Assembly: GCA_017883185.1 (NCBI GenBank)
Contig: JADGOB010000021.1
Location: forward strand, 1-40,889
From: Acidobacteriota bacterium
GTDB lineage: Bacteria > Acidobacteriota > Vicinamibacteria > Vicinamibacterales > Fen-181
Length of the DNA: 40,889 bases
Direction: 5' to 3'
Part shown: positions 18,910 to 37,452 of the stretch, piece by piece
How positions within the stretch are numbered: the stretch's first letter is position 1
Layout: the number at the start of each line of letters is the position of its first letter
Translations under genes and position numbers: made by a program
The notes under the pieces: model-generated
What the model was told of the DNA's origin: nothing
The model's database searches: none
Seen by the model: the letters and a program-made list of their open reading frames with translations, nothing else

Positions 18910-18978
18910 CGGTGACATTTCCGCGAATTACCGTGTTGTATGGCGGTTTTGTGATCGCGGAAATGTCACCCGACCCCC
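18904..18978. repeat. 75-bp palindromic MITE/REP-like element
   Basis: The left arm GGGGGCCGG + TGACATTTCCGCGA (18904-18926) is repeated inverted as TCGCGGAAATGTCA + CCCGACCCCC (18955-18978). The inner 15 bases GTGACATTTCCGCGA / TCGCGGAAATGTCAC are perfect; the outer parts differ by one substitution and one indel. The 28-base centre is A+T-richer. No open frame inside. The size and structure fit a non-autonomous mobile element or REP sequence. Confidence 0.65.
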
Positions 18979-18999
18979 GGCTTGCGGCTCGCGGCTTGA
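18979..18999. repeat. Short heptanucleotide array, right of the palindrome
   Basis: Three in-phase units ggcttgc, ggctcgc, ggcttga. The same family of words recurs at 29031, 29152 (inverted) and 35864. The last unit overlaps the -35 hexamer of the M16 promoter. Confidence 0.55.
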
Positions 19000-23147: not shown

Positions 23148-23217
23148 CATTGCCCCGTGAATTCCGAAGGCTGGTGTCCGGAAGTCGTCCTGACTCCTGA
23201 CGCCCGACTCCTTCGTG

Positions 23218-26943: not shown

Positions 26944-28998
26944 ATGCGAAAACCTGCCGCGTTCGCTTCCGCCCTTCTCCTGTTCGTTCTCGTGGCGCCC
27001 CCGTCGGAGGCCGGACAGGCCACAAAACGACCGCTCGGATTGGACGATATCGCCCGGCTCCGAACAGTTACCGACCCGCAGGTGTCTCCCGACGGCAAGT
27101 GGGTCGCCTACGTCGTCGGCACCCTCGATGCCGAGAAGGACAAGCGCGACGCCGACCTGTGGATGGTGAGCTGGGACGGCAGCCAACAGGTGCGGCTCAC
27201 GTCATCGCCAGAGAGCAGCGAGGGCACACCCAGGTGGAGCCCTGACGGGCGATACCTGGCGTTCCTCGCGTCGCGCGGCGGCGAGGACGAGAAGAAGAAA
27301 GGGGCGCAGGTGTGGCTGCTGGATCGCTCTGGCGGCGAGGCGCAGAAGCTGACCGACATCAAGGGCGGCGTGTCGGACTACGAATGGTCGCCCGACGGCA
27401 GGCGGCTGGCGCTCGTCGTGGACGACTTCGACCCGACCTCCGATCCCGAGAAGATGGACGGATGGAAACGAAAGACCACGCCGCCCATCGTGATCGACCG
27501 GTATCACTTCAAGTCCGACAAAGGCGGCTACCTGACGCGCCTCTACTCGCACCTGACGCTGTTCGACGTGGCGACGAAGAAGGCCGAGGTGCTGACGAGC
27601 GGAGCCTTCGACGACAGCGCGCCTGCCTGGTCGCCTGATGCGAAGTCGATTGCCTTCGTGAGCAACCGCGCGCCCGATCCCGACCGCACCGAGGACTCGA
27701 ACATCTACGTGGTCGAGGCCCGCCCAGGGGCCGAGGCGCGCCGGTTGACGACCTTCCCTGGACGCGACGGTGGCACGCCGTCGTGGAGCCCCGACGGCAA
27801 GTGGATCGCGTACTTCCAGGCCGACGAGACGAAGTACACGGCGTACTTCCTCGACAAGCTCGCCCTCATTCCGGCCGCGGGCGGAGCCGCGAAGGTGCTG
27901 ACCACGTCGCTCGACCGGGCGGTCAACGGCCAGATCCTCTGGTCGCCCGACAAAGAGAGCCTCCGCGTGGTCGTCGAAGACGACCGGACGTCGTACGTCG
28001 CGAAGGTGTCGGTATCGGCGGGCGTTGTGGACACGCTGACGACCGGTCAACGGACGGCGACATCAATCTCCCCGCGACCTGACGGGTCGTTGGCGCTGCT
28101 GGTGGGCACCGCAGGCGAGCCGGACGAAGTCTATGCCTTCGAGAACGGCGCGCTGCGCCGGCTGTCACATCAGAACGATTCGTGGCTGGCGGACGTGCAG
28201 CTGGCGAAGACGGAGGGTTTCACCTGCAAGACGAAGGACGGGACGGTCGTGAACGGGATTGTGCGAAAACCGGCGGGCTTCGTCTCTGGCAGGAAATACC
28301 CGACGCTGCTCATCATCCACGGCGGCCCGAACGGGCAGGACGATCTCAGCTTCGACCTTCAGCGCGAGTTCCTCGCGGCCAACGGCTACGTCGTGCTGGT
28401 CGTCAACTACCGCGGCAGCTCGGGCCGCGGCGCCGCCTACCAGAAGGCGATCTACGCCGACTGGGGCAACAAGGAGGTCGTGGACCTGCTGGCAGCGGTT
28501 GATTGGATGGTGGCATCCGGGATTGCCGACCCCGACCGGCTGGGCATCGGCGGGTGGAGCTACGGCGGAATCCTGACCGACTACACGATTGCGAGCGACA
28601 CGCGGTTCAAGGCGGCTGTGAGCGGCGCCAGCAGCGCGCTGCAGATGTCCCTCTACGGGGCGGACCAGTACATCATCCAGTGGGAACTCGAACTCGGCGT
28701 GCCCTGGAAGGCGGCCGACCTCTACACGAAGGTGTCGTACCCGTTCTTCCACGCCGACCGGATCAAGACGCCGACGCTGTTCATGTCGGGCGACAAGGAC
28801 TTCAACGTGCCCACGGTGGGCGTGGAGCAGATGTATCAGGCGCTGAAGAGCCTGAACGTCGAGACCCAGTTGGTGATCTACCCCGGCCAGCATCACGGCT
28901 TGACGACCCCAAGCTACCTGCGCGACCGGATGGCGCGGTGGCTCGCCTGGTACGACAAGTACCTGAAGTCGGAACTGACGCAGAGGGGTCGGAACTGA
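26944..28998 (+). CDS. Secreted S9 (prolyl oligopeptidase-type) serine peptidase
   Basis: A 684-residue exported peptidase. A signal peptide (about residues 7-24, AFASALLLFVLVAPPSEA) precedes a seven-bladed propeller of WD40/TolB-like repeats (about 40-400; DPQVSPDGKWVAYVV, PRWSPDGRYLAFLAS, PSWSPDGKWIAYF). A C-terminal alpha/beta hydrolase domain (about 420-680) follows. The catalytic triad is visible: Ser539 in GIGGWSYGG, Asp619 in SGDKDFNVP, His651 in GQHHG. The layout resembles acylaminoacyl/dipeptidyl peptidases, which trim short peptides, so it fits with the two M16 pairs in peptide use. No strong ribosome site lies near the ATG at 26944. The last residues (ELTQRGRN) come from a 20-bp duplication that also supplies the stop codon. 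Confidence 0.92.
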   Translation: MRKPAAFASALLLFVLVAPPSEAGQATKRPLGLDDIARLRTVTDPQVSPDGKWVAYVVGTLDAEKDKRDADLWMVSWDGSQQVRLTSSPESSEGTPRWSPDGRYLAFLASRGGEDEKKKGAQVWLLDRSGGEAQKLTDIKGGVSDYEWSPDGRRLALVVDDFDPTSDPEKMDGWKRKTTPPIVIDRYHFKSDKGGYLTRLYSHLTLFDVATKKAEVLTSGAFDDSAPAWSPDAKSIAFVSNRAPDPDRTEDSNIYVVEARPGAEARRLTTFPGRDGGTPSWSPDGKWIAYFQADETKYTAYFLDKLALIPAAGGAAKVLTTSLDRAVNGQILWSPDKESLRVVVEDDRTSYVAKVSVSAGVVDTLTTGQRTATSISPRPDGSLALLVGTAGEPDEVYAFENGALRRLSHQNDSWLADVQLAKTEGFTCKTKDGTVVNGIVRKPAGFVSGRKYPTLLIIHGGPNGQDDLSFDLQREFLAANGYVVLVVNYRGSSGRGAAYQKAIYADWGNKEVVDLLAAVDWMVASGIADPDRLGIGGWSYGGILTDYTIASDTRFKAAVSGASSALQMSLYGADQYIIQWELELGVPWKAADLYTKVSYPFFHADRIKTPTLFMSGDKDFNVPTVGVEQMYQALKSLNVETQLVIYPGQHHGLTTPSYLRDRMARWLAWYDKYLKSELTQRGRN

Positions 28999-29003
28999 CG
29001 CAG
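28968..29003 (+). repeat. 20-bp direct repeat at the S9 peptidase stop
   Basis: GTCGGAACTGACGCAG occurs at 28968 and again at 28988. The second copy contains the TGA stop at 28996-28998. Its reverse complement core CGTCAGTTCCGAC is the unit of the tandem array at 35982-36099. Confidence 0.7.
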
Positions 29004-29030
29004 ACTGCAATGGGTCTCGATGCGTCATTC

Positions 29031-29065
29031 GGCCTGCGGCTGCCGGCCTGCGACTTGCGGCCAGC
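29031..29065. repeat. Heptanucleotide array after the S9 peptidase
   Basis: Five in-phase units: ggcctgc, ggctgcc, ggcctgc, gacttgc, ggccagc. Related words occur inverted at 29152-29181, so the two arrays could form a large imperfect hairpin before the Mrp gene. Confidence 0.6.
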
Positions 29066-29219: not shown

Positions 29220-30302
29220 ATGTCTTCCGTTGACCAGGCTGCCGTGCTCGACGCGCTCCGCGCCGTGAAAGATCCCGACCTGCACCGCGACATCGTCGCG
29301 CTGAACTTCGTGAAGGACCTCCGGATAGACGGAGGGCGCGTGGCCTTCACGATCGAATTGACCACGCCGGCGTGTCCCGTCAAGGACGCTATGCGCGACC
29401 AGGCCAGGGCGGCCGTATCGAGCCTGCCTGGCGTCACCGACGTCGAGGTGACGATGACGGCGAGCGTGCGGACGGCGCGCAACGTTGGGTCCACCCAGGC
29501 GCCGATTCCCGGGATCAAGAACGTGGTGGCGGTGGGCGCGGGCAAGGGCGGCGTGGGCAAGACGACGCTGGCCGTAAACCTCGCAGCGGCGCTGTCGGCG
29601 CTCGGCAGCCGCGTGGGGATCATCGACGGCGATATCTACGGACCGAACGTGCCGATCATGCTCGGCGTGCACGGGCCGTTGGTGGCCGAGGGGGAGAAGA
29701 TGGTGCCGGTCGAGAAGTACGGCATCAAGGTCGTGTCGATGGGGTTTCTCGCCAACGACGAGTCGCCGGTGATCTGGCGCGGCCCGATGCTGCACAGCGT
29801 CATCCAACAGTTCTTCCACGACGTGAAGTGGGGCGAGCTCGATTACCTCGTGGTCGACATGCCGCCCGGAACCGGTGACGTCGCGCTCAGCCTCAACCAG
29901 ACTGTCCCCGTGGCCGGCGCGATCGTCGTCACGACGCCGCAGGAGGTGTCGCTCGCCGACAGCCGGCGTGCCGTGCGGATGTATCAGAAACTGAACATCC
30001 CGGTGCTCGGACTGATCGAGAACATGAGCTACTTCGTCTGCCCGAGCTGCAAGCACGAGAGCGACATCTTCGGACGGGATGGTGGCGAGCGCACGGCGGA
30101 AATGATGGAGATTCCGTTTCTTGGCCGGATCCCGATCTACGAGCCGATCCGGCGCGGCGGCGACGCGGGCGTCCCCCTCGTGATTGCCGAGCCCGAGTCG
30201 GCACCGGCGCGTGCGTTCTTTGTTGCCGCCGAACAGCTCGCCGCCCAGGTCTCGATCGCCAGCTACCGCAAGCCGGTCATTCCGGTGACGGCGGTGCCAT
30301 AG
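29220..30302 (+). CDS. Mrp/NBP35-family iron-sulfur carrier ATPase
   Basis: A 360-residue cytosolic P-loop protein. The N-terminal MIP18/DUF59-type domain (about residues 5-85; VLDALRAVKDPDLHRDIV, TPACPVKDAMRDQA) is followed by the ATPase domain with the deviant Walker A GKGGVGKTT (about 108-116), DGDIYGPNVP and DMPPGTGDVALSL. The pair Cys274-Pro-Ser-Cys277 is the conserved motif that holds a bridging 4Fe-4S cluster in Mrp/ApbC dimers. Such proteins bind and hand over Fe-S clusters to target enzymes. AGAGGAGAGAGG precedes the ATG at 29220. The 3' end overlaps the convergent MFS gene by 26 bases. It is apparently monocistronic. Confidence 0.93.
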   Translation: MSSVDQAAVLDALRAVKDPDLHRDIVALNFVKDLRIDGGRVAFTIELTTPACPVKDAMRDQARAAVSSLPGVTDVEVTMTASVRTARNVGSTQAPIPGIKNVVAVGAGKGGVGKTTLAVNLAAALSALGSRVGIIDGDIYGPNVPIMLGVHGPLVAEGEKMVPVEKYGIKVVSMGFLANDESPVIWRGPMLHSVIQQFFHDVKWGELDYLVVDMPPGTGDVALSLNQTVPVAGAIVVTTPQEVSLADSRRAVRMYQKLNIPVLGLIENMSYFVCPSCKHESDIFGRDGGERTAEMMEIPFLGRIPIYEPIRRGGDAGVPLVIAEPESAPARAFFVAAEQLAAQVSIASYRKPVIPVTAVP

Positions 30303-34750: not shown

Positions 34751-35803
34751 CTACAAGTTCTGGACCAGGAACTTTGTCAGCACGTATCCATCCAGGTACT
34801 TGAACGGCGTGAGCCCCGTCGTGTAGTGGCCGCACGGCAGGACGGCGAGCTGGTAGGGAACACCGAGGCGCTGGAACTCCCGAATCAGGTCGAGCGACAG
34901 GTGGACGGGGAAGGTGGTGTCGTAACGCGCGTAGACCAGCAGCGTCTTCTTGTCGTGCAGGCGCGAGACGTACGCCTGCGGGCTGATCGGCATCCACAGC
35001 TCGCGCAGCCGGTCGAGCGTGATGTGGCCGTCGAGACCCGCGCGGACATGTTCCGTGGACATCCCCTCCCAGACGACATCCGCGAAGTAGCGCGACACGT
35101 GATTCAGCGCCTCAGTCCGGATCAGCGGCTCGTGTGCCGACGTCAGCATCGCCAGGCATGAACCCAGGCTCGTCCCGAGGATTCCAATCCGTTCGTAGCC
35201 TTCGCGCGCCAGCCAGGCGACCGCCCGACGCGCATCCACCACCGCCTGGCGGCACACCTGCATCGTGCGCCCGACGTTGGCGCTGACGATGAAATCCGCG
35301 CGCCGCAGCTCGGGCGGCATCCGCCGGTCGTGGTAGGGTAGGCTCATCCGCAGGGCATTCAACCCGAACCGCGACAGCAGCCGGCAGAGGCCGACATGAC
35401 CACCCGCGTCCGCGTTCCACTGCGGAAGGACGACGATGGCCCGCCGTCGGTCCTCGCGCCCGCCTTTCAGCCGAGGCGCCGTGAACAGCCGCCCGTAGAC
35501 GATGTTGTTCTCCGGGTGAGGGGTCGTGATGACGCTCGGAAACGCGACGGTGCCCGCCCACCCGCCATCGTTCGTGGAATCAGGTTCCCAGGCAAAGTCG
35601 CTGGTTGGCGGCGTCTCGAAGAACCGGGGCGAATCCTCCAGCGCCGCCTTCGCCCAATCGGCGAGGACGACGTCCGCAGGGGTGCCTGGAGCGTGGCCGT
35701 TCGCGGCCATCCAGTCGAGCCCCCACTCGAAGGGGCGGACGACGCGGTCGGGCGTGCGGGAGTGAAGACGGCGTTCCCAAGCATGGAAGAACGGAGCGAG
35801 CAT
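34751..35803 (-). CDS. Alpha/beta hydrolase, possibly ABHD18-like
   Basis: A 350-residue protein with an alpha/beta hydrolase core. The nucleophile elbow is GILGTSLGSCLAML (G-T-S-L-G), followed by an aspartate in LLVYARYDTTFP and the histidine in LPCGHYTTG, so the triad appears complete. The N-terminal 100 residues have no clear domain (FHAWERRLHSRTP, WAKAALEDSPRFFETPP). The order RAIVVLPQWNADAGGHVGL then SLPYHDRR resembles DUF2048/ABHD18-type hydrolases. The start is Met at 35803; a longer frame to 35902 includes a repeat tract and is less likely. No signal peptide is apparent. Substrate unknown, probably an ester or thioester. Confidence 0.8.
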   Translation of the reverse strand: MLAPFFHAWERRLHSRTPDRVVRPFEWGLDWMAANGHAPGTPADVVLADWAKAALEDSPRFFETPPTSDFAWEPDSTNDGGWAGTVAFPSVITTPHPENNIVYGRLFTAPRLKGGREDRRRAIVVLPQWNADAGGHVGLCRLLSRFGLNALRMSLPYHDRRMPPELRRADFIVSANVGRTMQVCRQAVVDARRAVAWLAREGYERIGILGTSLGSCLAMLTSAHEPLIRTEALNHVSRYFADVVWEGMSTEHVRAGLDGHITLDRLRELWMPISPQAYVSRLHDKKTLLVYARYDTTFPVHLSLDLIREFQRLGVPYQLAVLPCGHYTTGLTPFKYLDGYVLTKFLVQNL

Positions 35804-35863
35804 TGCTGGGCTATTGTACCAAATGCCCGCAGTGGCGTCAGTCCCGACGGACTGTGGCAGTCC

Positions 35864-35898
35864 GGCTTGCGAGGTGCGGCTTGCGACCTGTGGCCTCA
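35864..35898. repeat. Heptanucleotide array upstream of the hydrolase
   Basis: Units ggcttgc, gaggtgc, ggcttgc, gacctgt, ggcctca: the same word family as at 18979 and 29031. Confidence 0.6.
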
Positions 35899-35981
35899 TC
35901 ACGGAGCACCCCGCCGAAGTTGAGAAACCACTCTCGGAGCAATTCTGCGGGCTCGCGCCCCCGTCAGCGTCCGACTGACAC

Positions 35982-36099
35982 CGTCAGTTCCGACTCCTCA
36001 TCGTCAGTCCCCGACTCCTCATCGTCAGTTCCGACTCCTCATCGTCCGTCCCCGACTCCTCATCGTCAGTCCCCGACTCTTCATCGTCAGTTCCGACTA
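35982..36099. repeat. 20/21-bp tandem array ending on the amidase stop
   Basis: About 5.7 copies. Unit A is CGTCAGTTCCGACTCCTCAT (20 bases; 35982, 36023, partial 36085) and unit B carries CCCCGAC in place of TTCCGAC (21 bases; 36002, 36043, 36064). The first four alternate A-B-A-B, giving a 41-bp higher-order period. Twenty-one is three heptads, so it may derive from the heptad class. The last partial copy contains the amidase stop codon (36097-36099). Confidence 0.85.
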
Positions 36100-37452
36100 C
36101 CCGCGTTGCCCGATGACGTCCTCGCACGTCGCCGCGAGGGTGAGCAAGTCTTCCGTCCGGCCGTGCCGTCCGACGAGCTGGAGGCCAACCGGGAGGTTGT
36201 CTCGGGACCGCCCGCAGGGCACCGAGATCGCCGGGTGGCCGGTGATGTCGAACAGCTGGGTCAGCCTCAGCATGAGCGCACGCACCGGGTAGGAGCGATC
36301 GCCGATGGTGAGCCCGGTGCTGCCGATCGGTTGCGCCGTGATCGGCACCGTCGGCAGGACCAGCCCGTCCAGTCCGTCCAGGGCGGCGTCCACTTCCCGC
36401 CGCAGGACCTCGGCTCCGACCTGCGCACGCGAGTAGTCTTCCGCCAGCACGTAACGCCCCATCTCGAGGCGCAGCCTGACCGGGGGCGTGTAGTCCTCGG
36501 GACGGGTTTGCAGCACAGGCGCGTGATAGGCCGACGCCTCGGGCAACTGCAGGTGGAGGTAGACCGCGGCGATGTCGGACGCGTGCGGGACCGCCCGCTC
36601 GACGACCGTCACTCCTGCCATCGCGAGACGTTCGAGCTCGAGCTCGAACTGCTCGCGGACGTCGTCCGACAGCACGTCCATGAAGTAGGGGCGAAGGAGG
36701 CCGATGCGCAGCGAAGGCGCGGGGCGCCTGACGGGCAGCAGCGGGGGATTCGGAATCCCGGTCATGACGTGAAACAGCAACCACGCGTCGGCGACCGTCC
36801 GCGTCAGCGGGCCGACGTGATCGAGCGTGCGACTGAGGGGGATGATCCCCTCGCAGGGCAGTTCGCCGCTCGTCGGCTTGAGGCCGACGCACCCGCACAC
36901 CGCGGCGGGAATCCGGATCGATCCGCCGGTGTCCGTGCCGATCGAGGCGTAGCCCATCCCAGTCACGACCGCCGCCGCTGACCCTCCGCTCGAGCCTCCT
37001 GCCGATCGGGTCGGGTCCCACGGGTTCCGCACCGGTCCGAACGCCGAATCCTCGCTGGTGGTGCCGAACGCGAACTCGTGCAGGTTGCACTTGCCGAGGA
37101 AGACGGCGCCCGCCGTCCGCAGCCTTGCGGTGATGGGCGCATCTGCGTCGGCGACGTGATGTTCGAGCACCCTGGACGCCGCGGTGGTCGGCACGCCGGC
37201 CAGGTCAATGAGGTCCTTCAGGGACAACGGCACCCCGTGCAGCGGCCCGCGATAGTGGCCCGAGGCGATTTCCTCGTCCGCCCGCCTGGCGTCCGCCCGA
37301 GCCTGGTCGGCCAGAATGGTGATGAAGGCATTGAGGCGGCCGTTGTTGCGCGCGATCTGCGTGAGGCAGGCGTCGGTCATCTCCACGGACGAGATGCCGC
37401 GCGACGAGAGGCGAGCCGCCAGGTCGGTAATGGCGCAGTCGAGCATCGTCAT
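36097..37452 (-). CDS. Amidase-signature hydrolase (GatA/AtzE-like)
   Basis: A 451-residue amidase-signature enzyme hydrolysing a C-N amide bond. The Ser-cisSer-Lys triad is visible: Lys79 in PLSLKDLID, the cis-serine at 154 or 155 in SAGGSSGGS, and the nucleophile Ser178 in TDTGGSIRIP. Flanking words NLHEFAFGTTS and HVGPLTRTVADA are typical of the GatA-like branch. The substrate is unknown; some relatives act with a small GatC-like partner on biuret, carboxybiuret or similar ureides. Its ATG at 37452 overlaps the upstream small gene's stop (ATGA), implying translational coupling. This is not obviously the tRNA amidotransferase, since gatB is absent. The stop codon lies in the tandem array. 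Confidence 0.88.
   Translation of the reverse strand: MTMLDCAITDLAARLSSRGISSVEMTDACLTQIARNNGRLNAFITILADQARADARRADEEIASGHYRGPLHGVPLSLKDLIDLAGVPTTAASRVLEHHVADADAPITARLRTAGAVFLGKCNLHEFAFGTTSEDSAFGPVRNPWDPTRSAGGSSGGSAAAVVTGMGYASIGTDTGGSIRIPAAVCGCVGLKPTSGELPCEGIIPLSRTLDHVGPLTRTVADAWLLFHVMTGIPNPPLLPVRRPAPSLRIGLLRPYFMDVLSDDVREQFELELERLAMAGVTVVERAVPHASDIAAVYLHLQLPEASAYHAPVLQTRPEDYTPPVRLRLEMGRYVLAEDYSRAQVGAEVLRREVDAALDGLDGLVLPTVPITAQPIGSTGLTIGDRSYPVRALMLRLTQLFDITGHPAISVPCGRSRDNLPVGLQLVGRHGRTEDLLTLAATCEDVIGQRG

What the first reader, a model, noticed from the sequence alone, without database searches (positions are those of the whole stretch)
35982..36099. 20/21-bp tandem array with alternating units and a distant relative in the S9 gene
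Units with TTCCGAC and CCCCGAC alternate over the first four copies, giving a 41-bp super-period. The core CGTCAGTTCCGAC is the exact reverse complement of the word duplicated at 28968-29003, 7 kb away, at another gene end. Two independent gene 3' ends thus carry the same word in mirrored sense relative to the plus strand but both reading GTCGGAACTGACG in the direction of their gene's transcription.
Basis: seen in the sequence. Interest (0 to 1): 0.6.

Follow-up and report, generated by a model that had tools for sequence, protein, structure and literature searches.

The report
Dispersed 20-bp tandem repeats at gene edges
This bacterium carries one short DNA word copied in head-to-tail rows at about fifty gene edges; the rows start at the gene boundary, change between sister species, and resemble poorly understood repeat rows described in Xanthomonas and Nostoc.

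Summary
The array is real: six 20/21-bp units at 35982-36097, read GTCGGAACTGACGATGAGGA on the minus strand, starting inside the TAG stop of an amidase gene; two more units end the S9 peptidase gene at 28968. It is not a coincidence of two places. The genome (4.85 Mb, an acidobacterium) holds 110 exact copies of GTCGGAACTGACG and none of the reversed control, in about 50 arrays. Four congeners hold 9-156 copies; the rest of the order and phylum is at chance level. Arrays are polar: the 5' (GTCGG) edge lies a median 7 bp from a gene edge, the 3' edge 139 bp. TA precedes the first unit in 16 of 38 arrays (1.7% expected). Orthologous spots in sister species carry other unit numbers, other repeats (often 7-bp) or none, and species-specific composite units occur in many arrays. 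Best reading: a genus-specific dispersed minisatellite anchored at gene edges, spread by copying plus slippage; closest known kind is the polar heptamer arrays of Xanthomonas/Nostoc. Entry mechanism and function are not shown.

The parts
35982..36097 (-). main array: six 20/21-bp units, GTCGGAACTGACGATGARGA and GTCGGGGACTGACGATGAGGA
35962..35979 (-). degenerate terminal copy GTCAGTCGGACGCTGACG (3' end of the array)
35836..35848 (-). single relic unit GTCGGGACTGACG; its CTGACG lies where the -35 hexamer of a promoter-like site (TACAAT 17 bp away) would be; G001 has the last unit of an array here
28968..29004 (+). two units GTCGGAACTGACGCAGAGGG / GTCGGAACTGACGCAGA; the S9 frame stops inside the second unit (TGA)
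36097..37452 (-). amidase gene (PF01425); its TAG stop shares the G with the first unit (TA|GTCGG)
   Evidence: TAG also in the G004 ortholog without array
34751..35803 (-). alpha/beta-hydrolase-like gene downstream of the array
26944..28998 (+). S9 prolyl oligopeptidase gene (PF00326); orthologs end ..AAGAAG TAG/TAA, here ..CTGAA|GTCGGAACTG..
29220..30302 (+). Mrp/ApbC-like P-loop NTPase gene downstream of the S9 repeat

Best explanation
A genus-specific, dispersed minisatellite family of intergenic DNA. A ~20-bp word enters at gene edges, preferring a TA just before a G (stop codons TAG/TAA, A/T-rich promoter edges). It then grows and shrinks in place by unit duplication (slippage or unequal recombination), inward from the gene edge. 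Units, including composite units that picked up an insert, are copied from array to array (gene conversion or template switching), which keeps the core alike. It is one case of a wider property of this phylum, whose intergenic DNA is rich in short tandem repeats with 7-bp steps. Shown: the family, its polarity, the TA bias, turnover in place between sister species, and species-specific composite units in many arrays. Inferred: the copying route, the entry step, and the lack of a necessary function. A derivation of the 20-bp unit from three heptads is not shown.
For: Copy number 110/156/16/9/10 in five congeners against 0-2 in 75 other genomes of the order and in the phylum sample. Polarity: median 5' distance 7 bp, 3' distance 139 bp, 32 against 8 arrays, Wilcoxon p=0.004 in G000 alone. 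TA before the first unit in 16/38 arrays against 1.7% of intergenic Gs. Sites without this array: S9 gene in G002, G003, G004 and amidase in G004. Same sites with different unit numbers and variants in G001, flanks mostly 95-98% identical. Units more alike within than between arrays (2.98 against 4.47 edits; 0 of 200 permutations). Composite unit A in 11 places in G000 and 1 in G001; composite B in 0 and 7. Different repeats, often heptamers, at the orthologous spots in G002-G004. Lag-7 tandem clusters about 45-50 per Mb across the phylum against 1.3 per Mb in a panel of other phyla.
Against: The core GTCGGAACTGACG is the same in five species, some of whose orthologous genes are only 75-85% identical, which plain drift would not keep; a constrained site or a fixed source sequence would fit equally well. 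20 bp is not a multiple of 7 and the unit has no evident internal 7-bp repeat. No clean empty site with both flanks conserved was found, so precise insertion is not proven. TA enrichment partly follows from sitting at stop codons and promoters.
Confidence: 0.6

Rival explanations
1. Protein-binding arrays. Each unit holds an imperfect dyad GTCGG-nn-CTGAC, and units are spaced 20-21 bp, about two helical turns, so a dimeric protein could bind cooperatively along one face (iteron- or operator-like) to insulate, silence or organise DNA.
For: Conserved core with variable centre and linker; spacing 20 (275 of 361 units) or 21 (63). Same core in five species. Positions 16, 17 and 19, which the search pattern did not force, are also conserved.
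Against: The centre of the dyad varies from 2 to 4 bases, even within one array. Conservation of positions 1-5 and partly 8-13 is built into the unit search. Unit number and site occupancy vary freely, and many orthologous sites have none. The few flanking genes named here are unrelated.
Confidence: 0.17
2. Product of an active mobile or end-adding system (a transposase acting on TA|G, or a reverse transcriptase adding copies of a template at breaks), comparable to REP/RAYT or telomere-like addition.
For: Sharp 5' edge with TA, first unit more intact than the last, dispersal over about 50 sites, large expansion in only two of five species.
Against: No Y1 (RAYT/IS200-type) transposase in the genome. 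The two reverse transcriptases look like group II intron types (by eye) and have no array beside them. No target-site duplication seen. Viral contigs give one match per contig only.
Confidence: 0.12
3. RNA element of mRNA 3' ends (terminator, stabiliser or all-frame stop).
For: Sense orientation at stops. GTCGG of one unit can pair with CTGAC of another; two of six arrays fold much better than shuffles (z -4.2, -4.6). Each unit holds a TGA, and a 20-bp period gives stops in all frames.
Against: Window arrays fold at z -2.2 and -0.8; no terminator-like site or Rfam match. A third of arrays follow a gene on the other strand.
Confidence: 0.08
4. Chance recurrence of a word at two gene ends.
For: Degenerate matches are common in one window.
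Against: 110 exact copies against 0 of the control.
Confidence: 0.01

Closest known systems
Heptameric GGGAATC (Xanthomonas) and GGGGA(C/T)T (Nostoc/Anabaena) intergenic repeat arrays (Rehm et al. 2015, PMC4692102)
   Same: Dispersed tandem arrays, one word per lineage, intergenic; close to the 5' neighbouring gene whatever its orientation (average 28 nt against 160 nt downstream), some overlapping stop codons; same positions in sister species with varying length; single arrays or inverted pairs; function unknown.
   Different: Unit 20/21 bp instead of 7; not of the G-quadruplex type; here a TA bias at the edge, composite units present in many arrays, replacement by other repeats at orthologous sites, and a different phylum.
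TAACTGA direct repeats of Beggiatoaceae (MacGregor 2015, PMC4679880)
   Same: 169 sets of short direct repeats, intergenic, near gene boundaries.
   Different: 7-bp unit, mostly just upstream of start codons; proposed translational role.
MIRU elements of Mycobacterium (from my own knowledge)
   Same: Direct repeats dispersed between genes, overlapping stop codons, variable unit number.
   Different: Longer units (roughly 50-100 bp), mostly between co-transcribed genes.
REP/RAYT elements (from my own knowledge)
   Same: Short dispersed intergenic repeats with some pairing potential.
   Different: Palindromic units with a dedicated Y1 transposase, which is absent here.

Membership tests
Polar intergenic short tandem repeats (Xanthomonas/Nostoc heptamer kind) | One word in many dispersed tandem arrays, mainly intergenic | tested here: met
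   110 copies, about 50 arrays, few inside genes
Polar intergenic short tandem repeats (Xanthomonas/Nostoc heptamer kind) | Nearer to the 5' neighbouring gene regardless of that gene's orientation | tested here: met
   median 7 against 139 bp
Polar intergenic short tandem repeats (Xanthomonas/Nostoc heptamer kind) | Same positions but different length in sister species | tested here: met
   G000/G001 pairs
Polar intergenic short tandem repeats (Xanthomonas/Nostoc heptamer kind) | 7-bp unit with G-tracts able to form quadruplexes | tested here: not met
   unit length 20/21, no GGG tract in the consensus unit
REP/RAYT | Y1 transposase of the RAYT kind in the genome | tested here: not met
   PF01797: no match in G000 while controls ring
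CRISPR array | Repeats separated by unique spacers of similar length | tested here: not met
   units are head to tail; the 7-base linker is itself repeated
Iteron / operator array | A cognate protein binds the unit | not testable with these tools
   only spacing and dyad seen
MIRU | Homology to mycobacterial MIRU units | not tested
   comparison from memory only; units differ in length
Mobile element with target-site duplication | Target duplication or conserved ends at both edges | tested here: inconclusive
   sharp TA|GTCGG left edge, ragged right edge, no clean empty site with both flanks

The most novel reading that the evidence does not exclude
An unrecognised enzymatic process in Acidobacteriota deposits short direct repeats, starting at TA|G at gene edges and pointing into the intergenic space; the word used differs by lineage (20-mer here, heptamers elsewhere), and the same process made the Xanthomonas and Nostoc arrays.
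Probability: 0.15. Interest if true: 0.85.

Novelty: new variant of a known kind. Interest (0 to 1): 0.5.

Why it matters
How dispersed short tandem repeats reach many sites in a bacterial genome is unexplained in the papers read here on Xanthomonas, Nostoc and Beggiatoaceae. Two sister species with about 96% identical flanks, the same sites, different unit counts and private composite units make entry, growth and exchange of units directly measurable. The phylum-wide 7-bp periodicity of intergenic DNA would be a general feature of acidobacterial genomes; the one literature query made for it found no paper. The arrays probably also break assemblies: several contigs of this genome end in one.

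Tried and rejected
RAYT/REP link: no Y1 transposase. Reverse-transcriptase link: two RTs of group II intron look, no array beside either. Phage origin: the viral-contig scan gave one match per contig, not inspected one by one. RNA terminator: no terminator-like site, no Rfam family. Strict transcription-strand rule: not significant between co-directional genes. Derivation of the 20-mer from three heptads: no internal 7-bp similarity by eye, so not claimed.

Full report
Observation. The array and its coordinates are exact. Read on the minus strand it is GTCGGAACTGACGATGAAGA, GTCGGGGACTGACGATGAGGA, GTCGGGGACGGACGATGAGGA, GTCGGAACTGACGATGAGGA, GTCGGGGACTGACGATGAGGA, GTCGGAACTGACG, then a degenerate copy. 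It starts at the stop codon of an amidase gene, GGG TA|GTCGG, so that the G of TAG is the first base of the array. The second place, 28968-29004, holds two units at the end of an S9 peptidase gene, whose frame stops at a TGA inside the repeat.

Genome-wide. The exact 13-base word occurs 110 times in the window's genome and the reversed control 0 times; the CCCC-type word occurs 10 times. The copies lie in about 50 arrays with unit lengths mostly 20 (150 of 195 units in G000), also 21 and 19. Several arrays sit at contig ends. Congeners G001-G004 hold 156, 16, 9 and 10 copies; 75 further genomes of the order and the phylum sample hold 0-2, close to the control. Contig lengths identify G001 as JANYLG01 and G002 as JAJXZZ01, both titled Acidobacteria bacterium.

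Position and polarity. With a codon-usage gene caller, the GTCGG edge lies a median 7 bp from the neighbouring gene and the other edge 139 bp (32 against 8 arrays, Wilcoxon p=0.004, G000 only). Sense arrays at stops: 19 of 25 within 25 bp; antisense: 5 of 18 (p=0.002). Between co-directional genes 19 arrays run with and 12 against the genes (p=0.28). So the pattern is edge polarity rather than transcription sense. Many arrays beside starts of divergent genes begin next to A/T-rich, -10-like sequences (by eye). TA precedes the first unit in 16 of 38 arrays with at least three units, against 1.7% of intergenic Gs; about half of the sixteen are at a stop codon, the rest are not. Some intergenic regions hold two arrays facing each other, one from each side: L253, L262 and L265. 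In G004 arrays start 12 bp past the 3' end of a tRNA-Lys gene and 7 bp upstream of a tRNA-Met gene, pointing away from each. The first unit is more intact than the last (1.3 against 3.0 edits), although the last one is often a partial unit.

Comparison between species. At the S9 end the orthologs read ..AAGAAG TAG (G003, G004) or ..AAGAAGTAA followed by (GAAGTAA)n (G002); the amidase ortholog in G004 ends ..GGGAG TAG with no array. In G001 the amidase end carries an array at the same base with other units. Flank identity between G000 and G001 is mostly 95-98%, yet arrays at shared sites differ in number and type of units, and few identical units are shared. Orthologous spots in G002-G004 often carry unrelated short tandem repeats, many with 7-bp units.

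Unit exchange. Units are more alike within arrays than between (2.98 against 4.47 edits, 0 of 200 permutations). A composite unit with a hairpin-like insert (GGCGGG|ACG junction) is found at 11 places in G000 and one in G001; another composite (TGACGnnGA|TCGGCGCC) at 7 places in G001 and none in G000. An exact 25-base core of insert A was found six times genome-wide, five of them in arrays already fetched and the sixth (C107, L388) beside repeat units as well. This is best explained by spread between arrays after the two species parted; a site-specific insertion repeated many times is not fully excluded.

Context. Intergenic DNA of this family has tandem-repeat lags peaking at multiples of 7 as well as 20 and 41. 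Lag-7 clusters number 36 in 784 kb of own genus and family, 17 in 325 kb of the order, 15 in 343 kb of the rest of the phylum, and 1 in 757 kb of a mixed panel of other phyla. The panel was chosen by a chance match to the word, so it is arbitrary rather than random. One of the phylum clusters is a poly-G/poly-C run.

Mechanism. I favour DNA dynamics without a dedicated machine: entry at gene edges, growth in place by duplication (one or two units at a time, as the 41-bp period here suggests), and copying between arrays. What is shown is turnover, polarity, TA bias and private composite units. The entry step and the copying route are inferred. The strongest point against a purely neutral reading is that the core stays the same across five species while linkers change; the search words favour that result, so it is suggestive only.

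Known kinds. Rehm et al. 2015 (PMC4692102) describe the same layout for 7-bp G-rich repeats in Xanthomonas and Nostoc: near the 5' neighbouring gene whatever its orientation, overlapping stop codons, single or inverted pairs, same positions in sister species, no known function. The present family shares that layout but not the unit length or the G-tracts. It is filed as a variant of that kind, not as a member of the quadruplex-forming family.

Noticed in passing
window:35813-35848 (-) and L277 around 9970: The relic or terminal repeat unit ends in CTGACG exactly 17 bp before TACAAT, so a repeat unit may serve as the -35 box of the hydrolase gene in both G000 and G001.
   Followed up: partly
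L040, L041, L044, L046, L048, L054, L056, L057, L060: Hairpin-like inserts (CTGCC..CACGCCGAAGTCGCGGAGCGACGAAGGCGGG) inside repeat units, rejoining the unit at ACG; G001 has a different insert in its arrays.
   Followed up: partly
L036:1700-1830 (-): Downstream of one array lies another, 17-bp tandem repeat ATCATCGACTCACARRG, in effect the inverted sense of TGAGTCGATGAT.
   Followed up: no
window:98-191, 1029-1068, 18978-18998, 23188-23212, 35855-35900, 29030-29062: Degenerate 7-bp tandem repeats (CCCTCGC, TCGTCCC, CGGCTTG, TCCTGAC and others), an example of the phylum-wide heptad periodicity of intergenic DNA.
   Followed up: yes
L250:2976-3062, L253:3067-3149: In G004 arrays begin 12 bp past the 3' end of a tRNA-Lys gene and 7 bp upstream of a tRNA-Met gene, so tRNA edges are used like gene edges.
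   Followed up: partly
L432, L433: Two reverse transcriptases of group II intron look in the genome (C63, C70); no repeat array beside them.
   Followed up: partly
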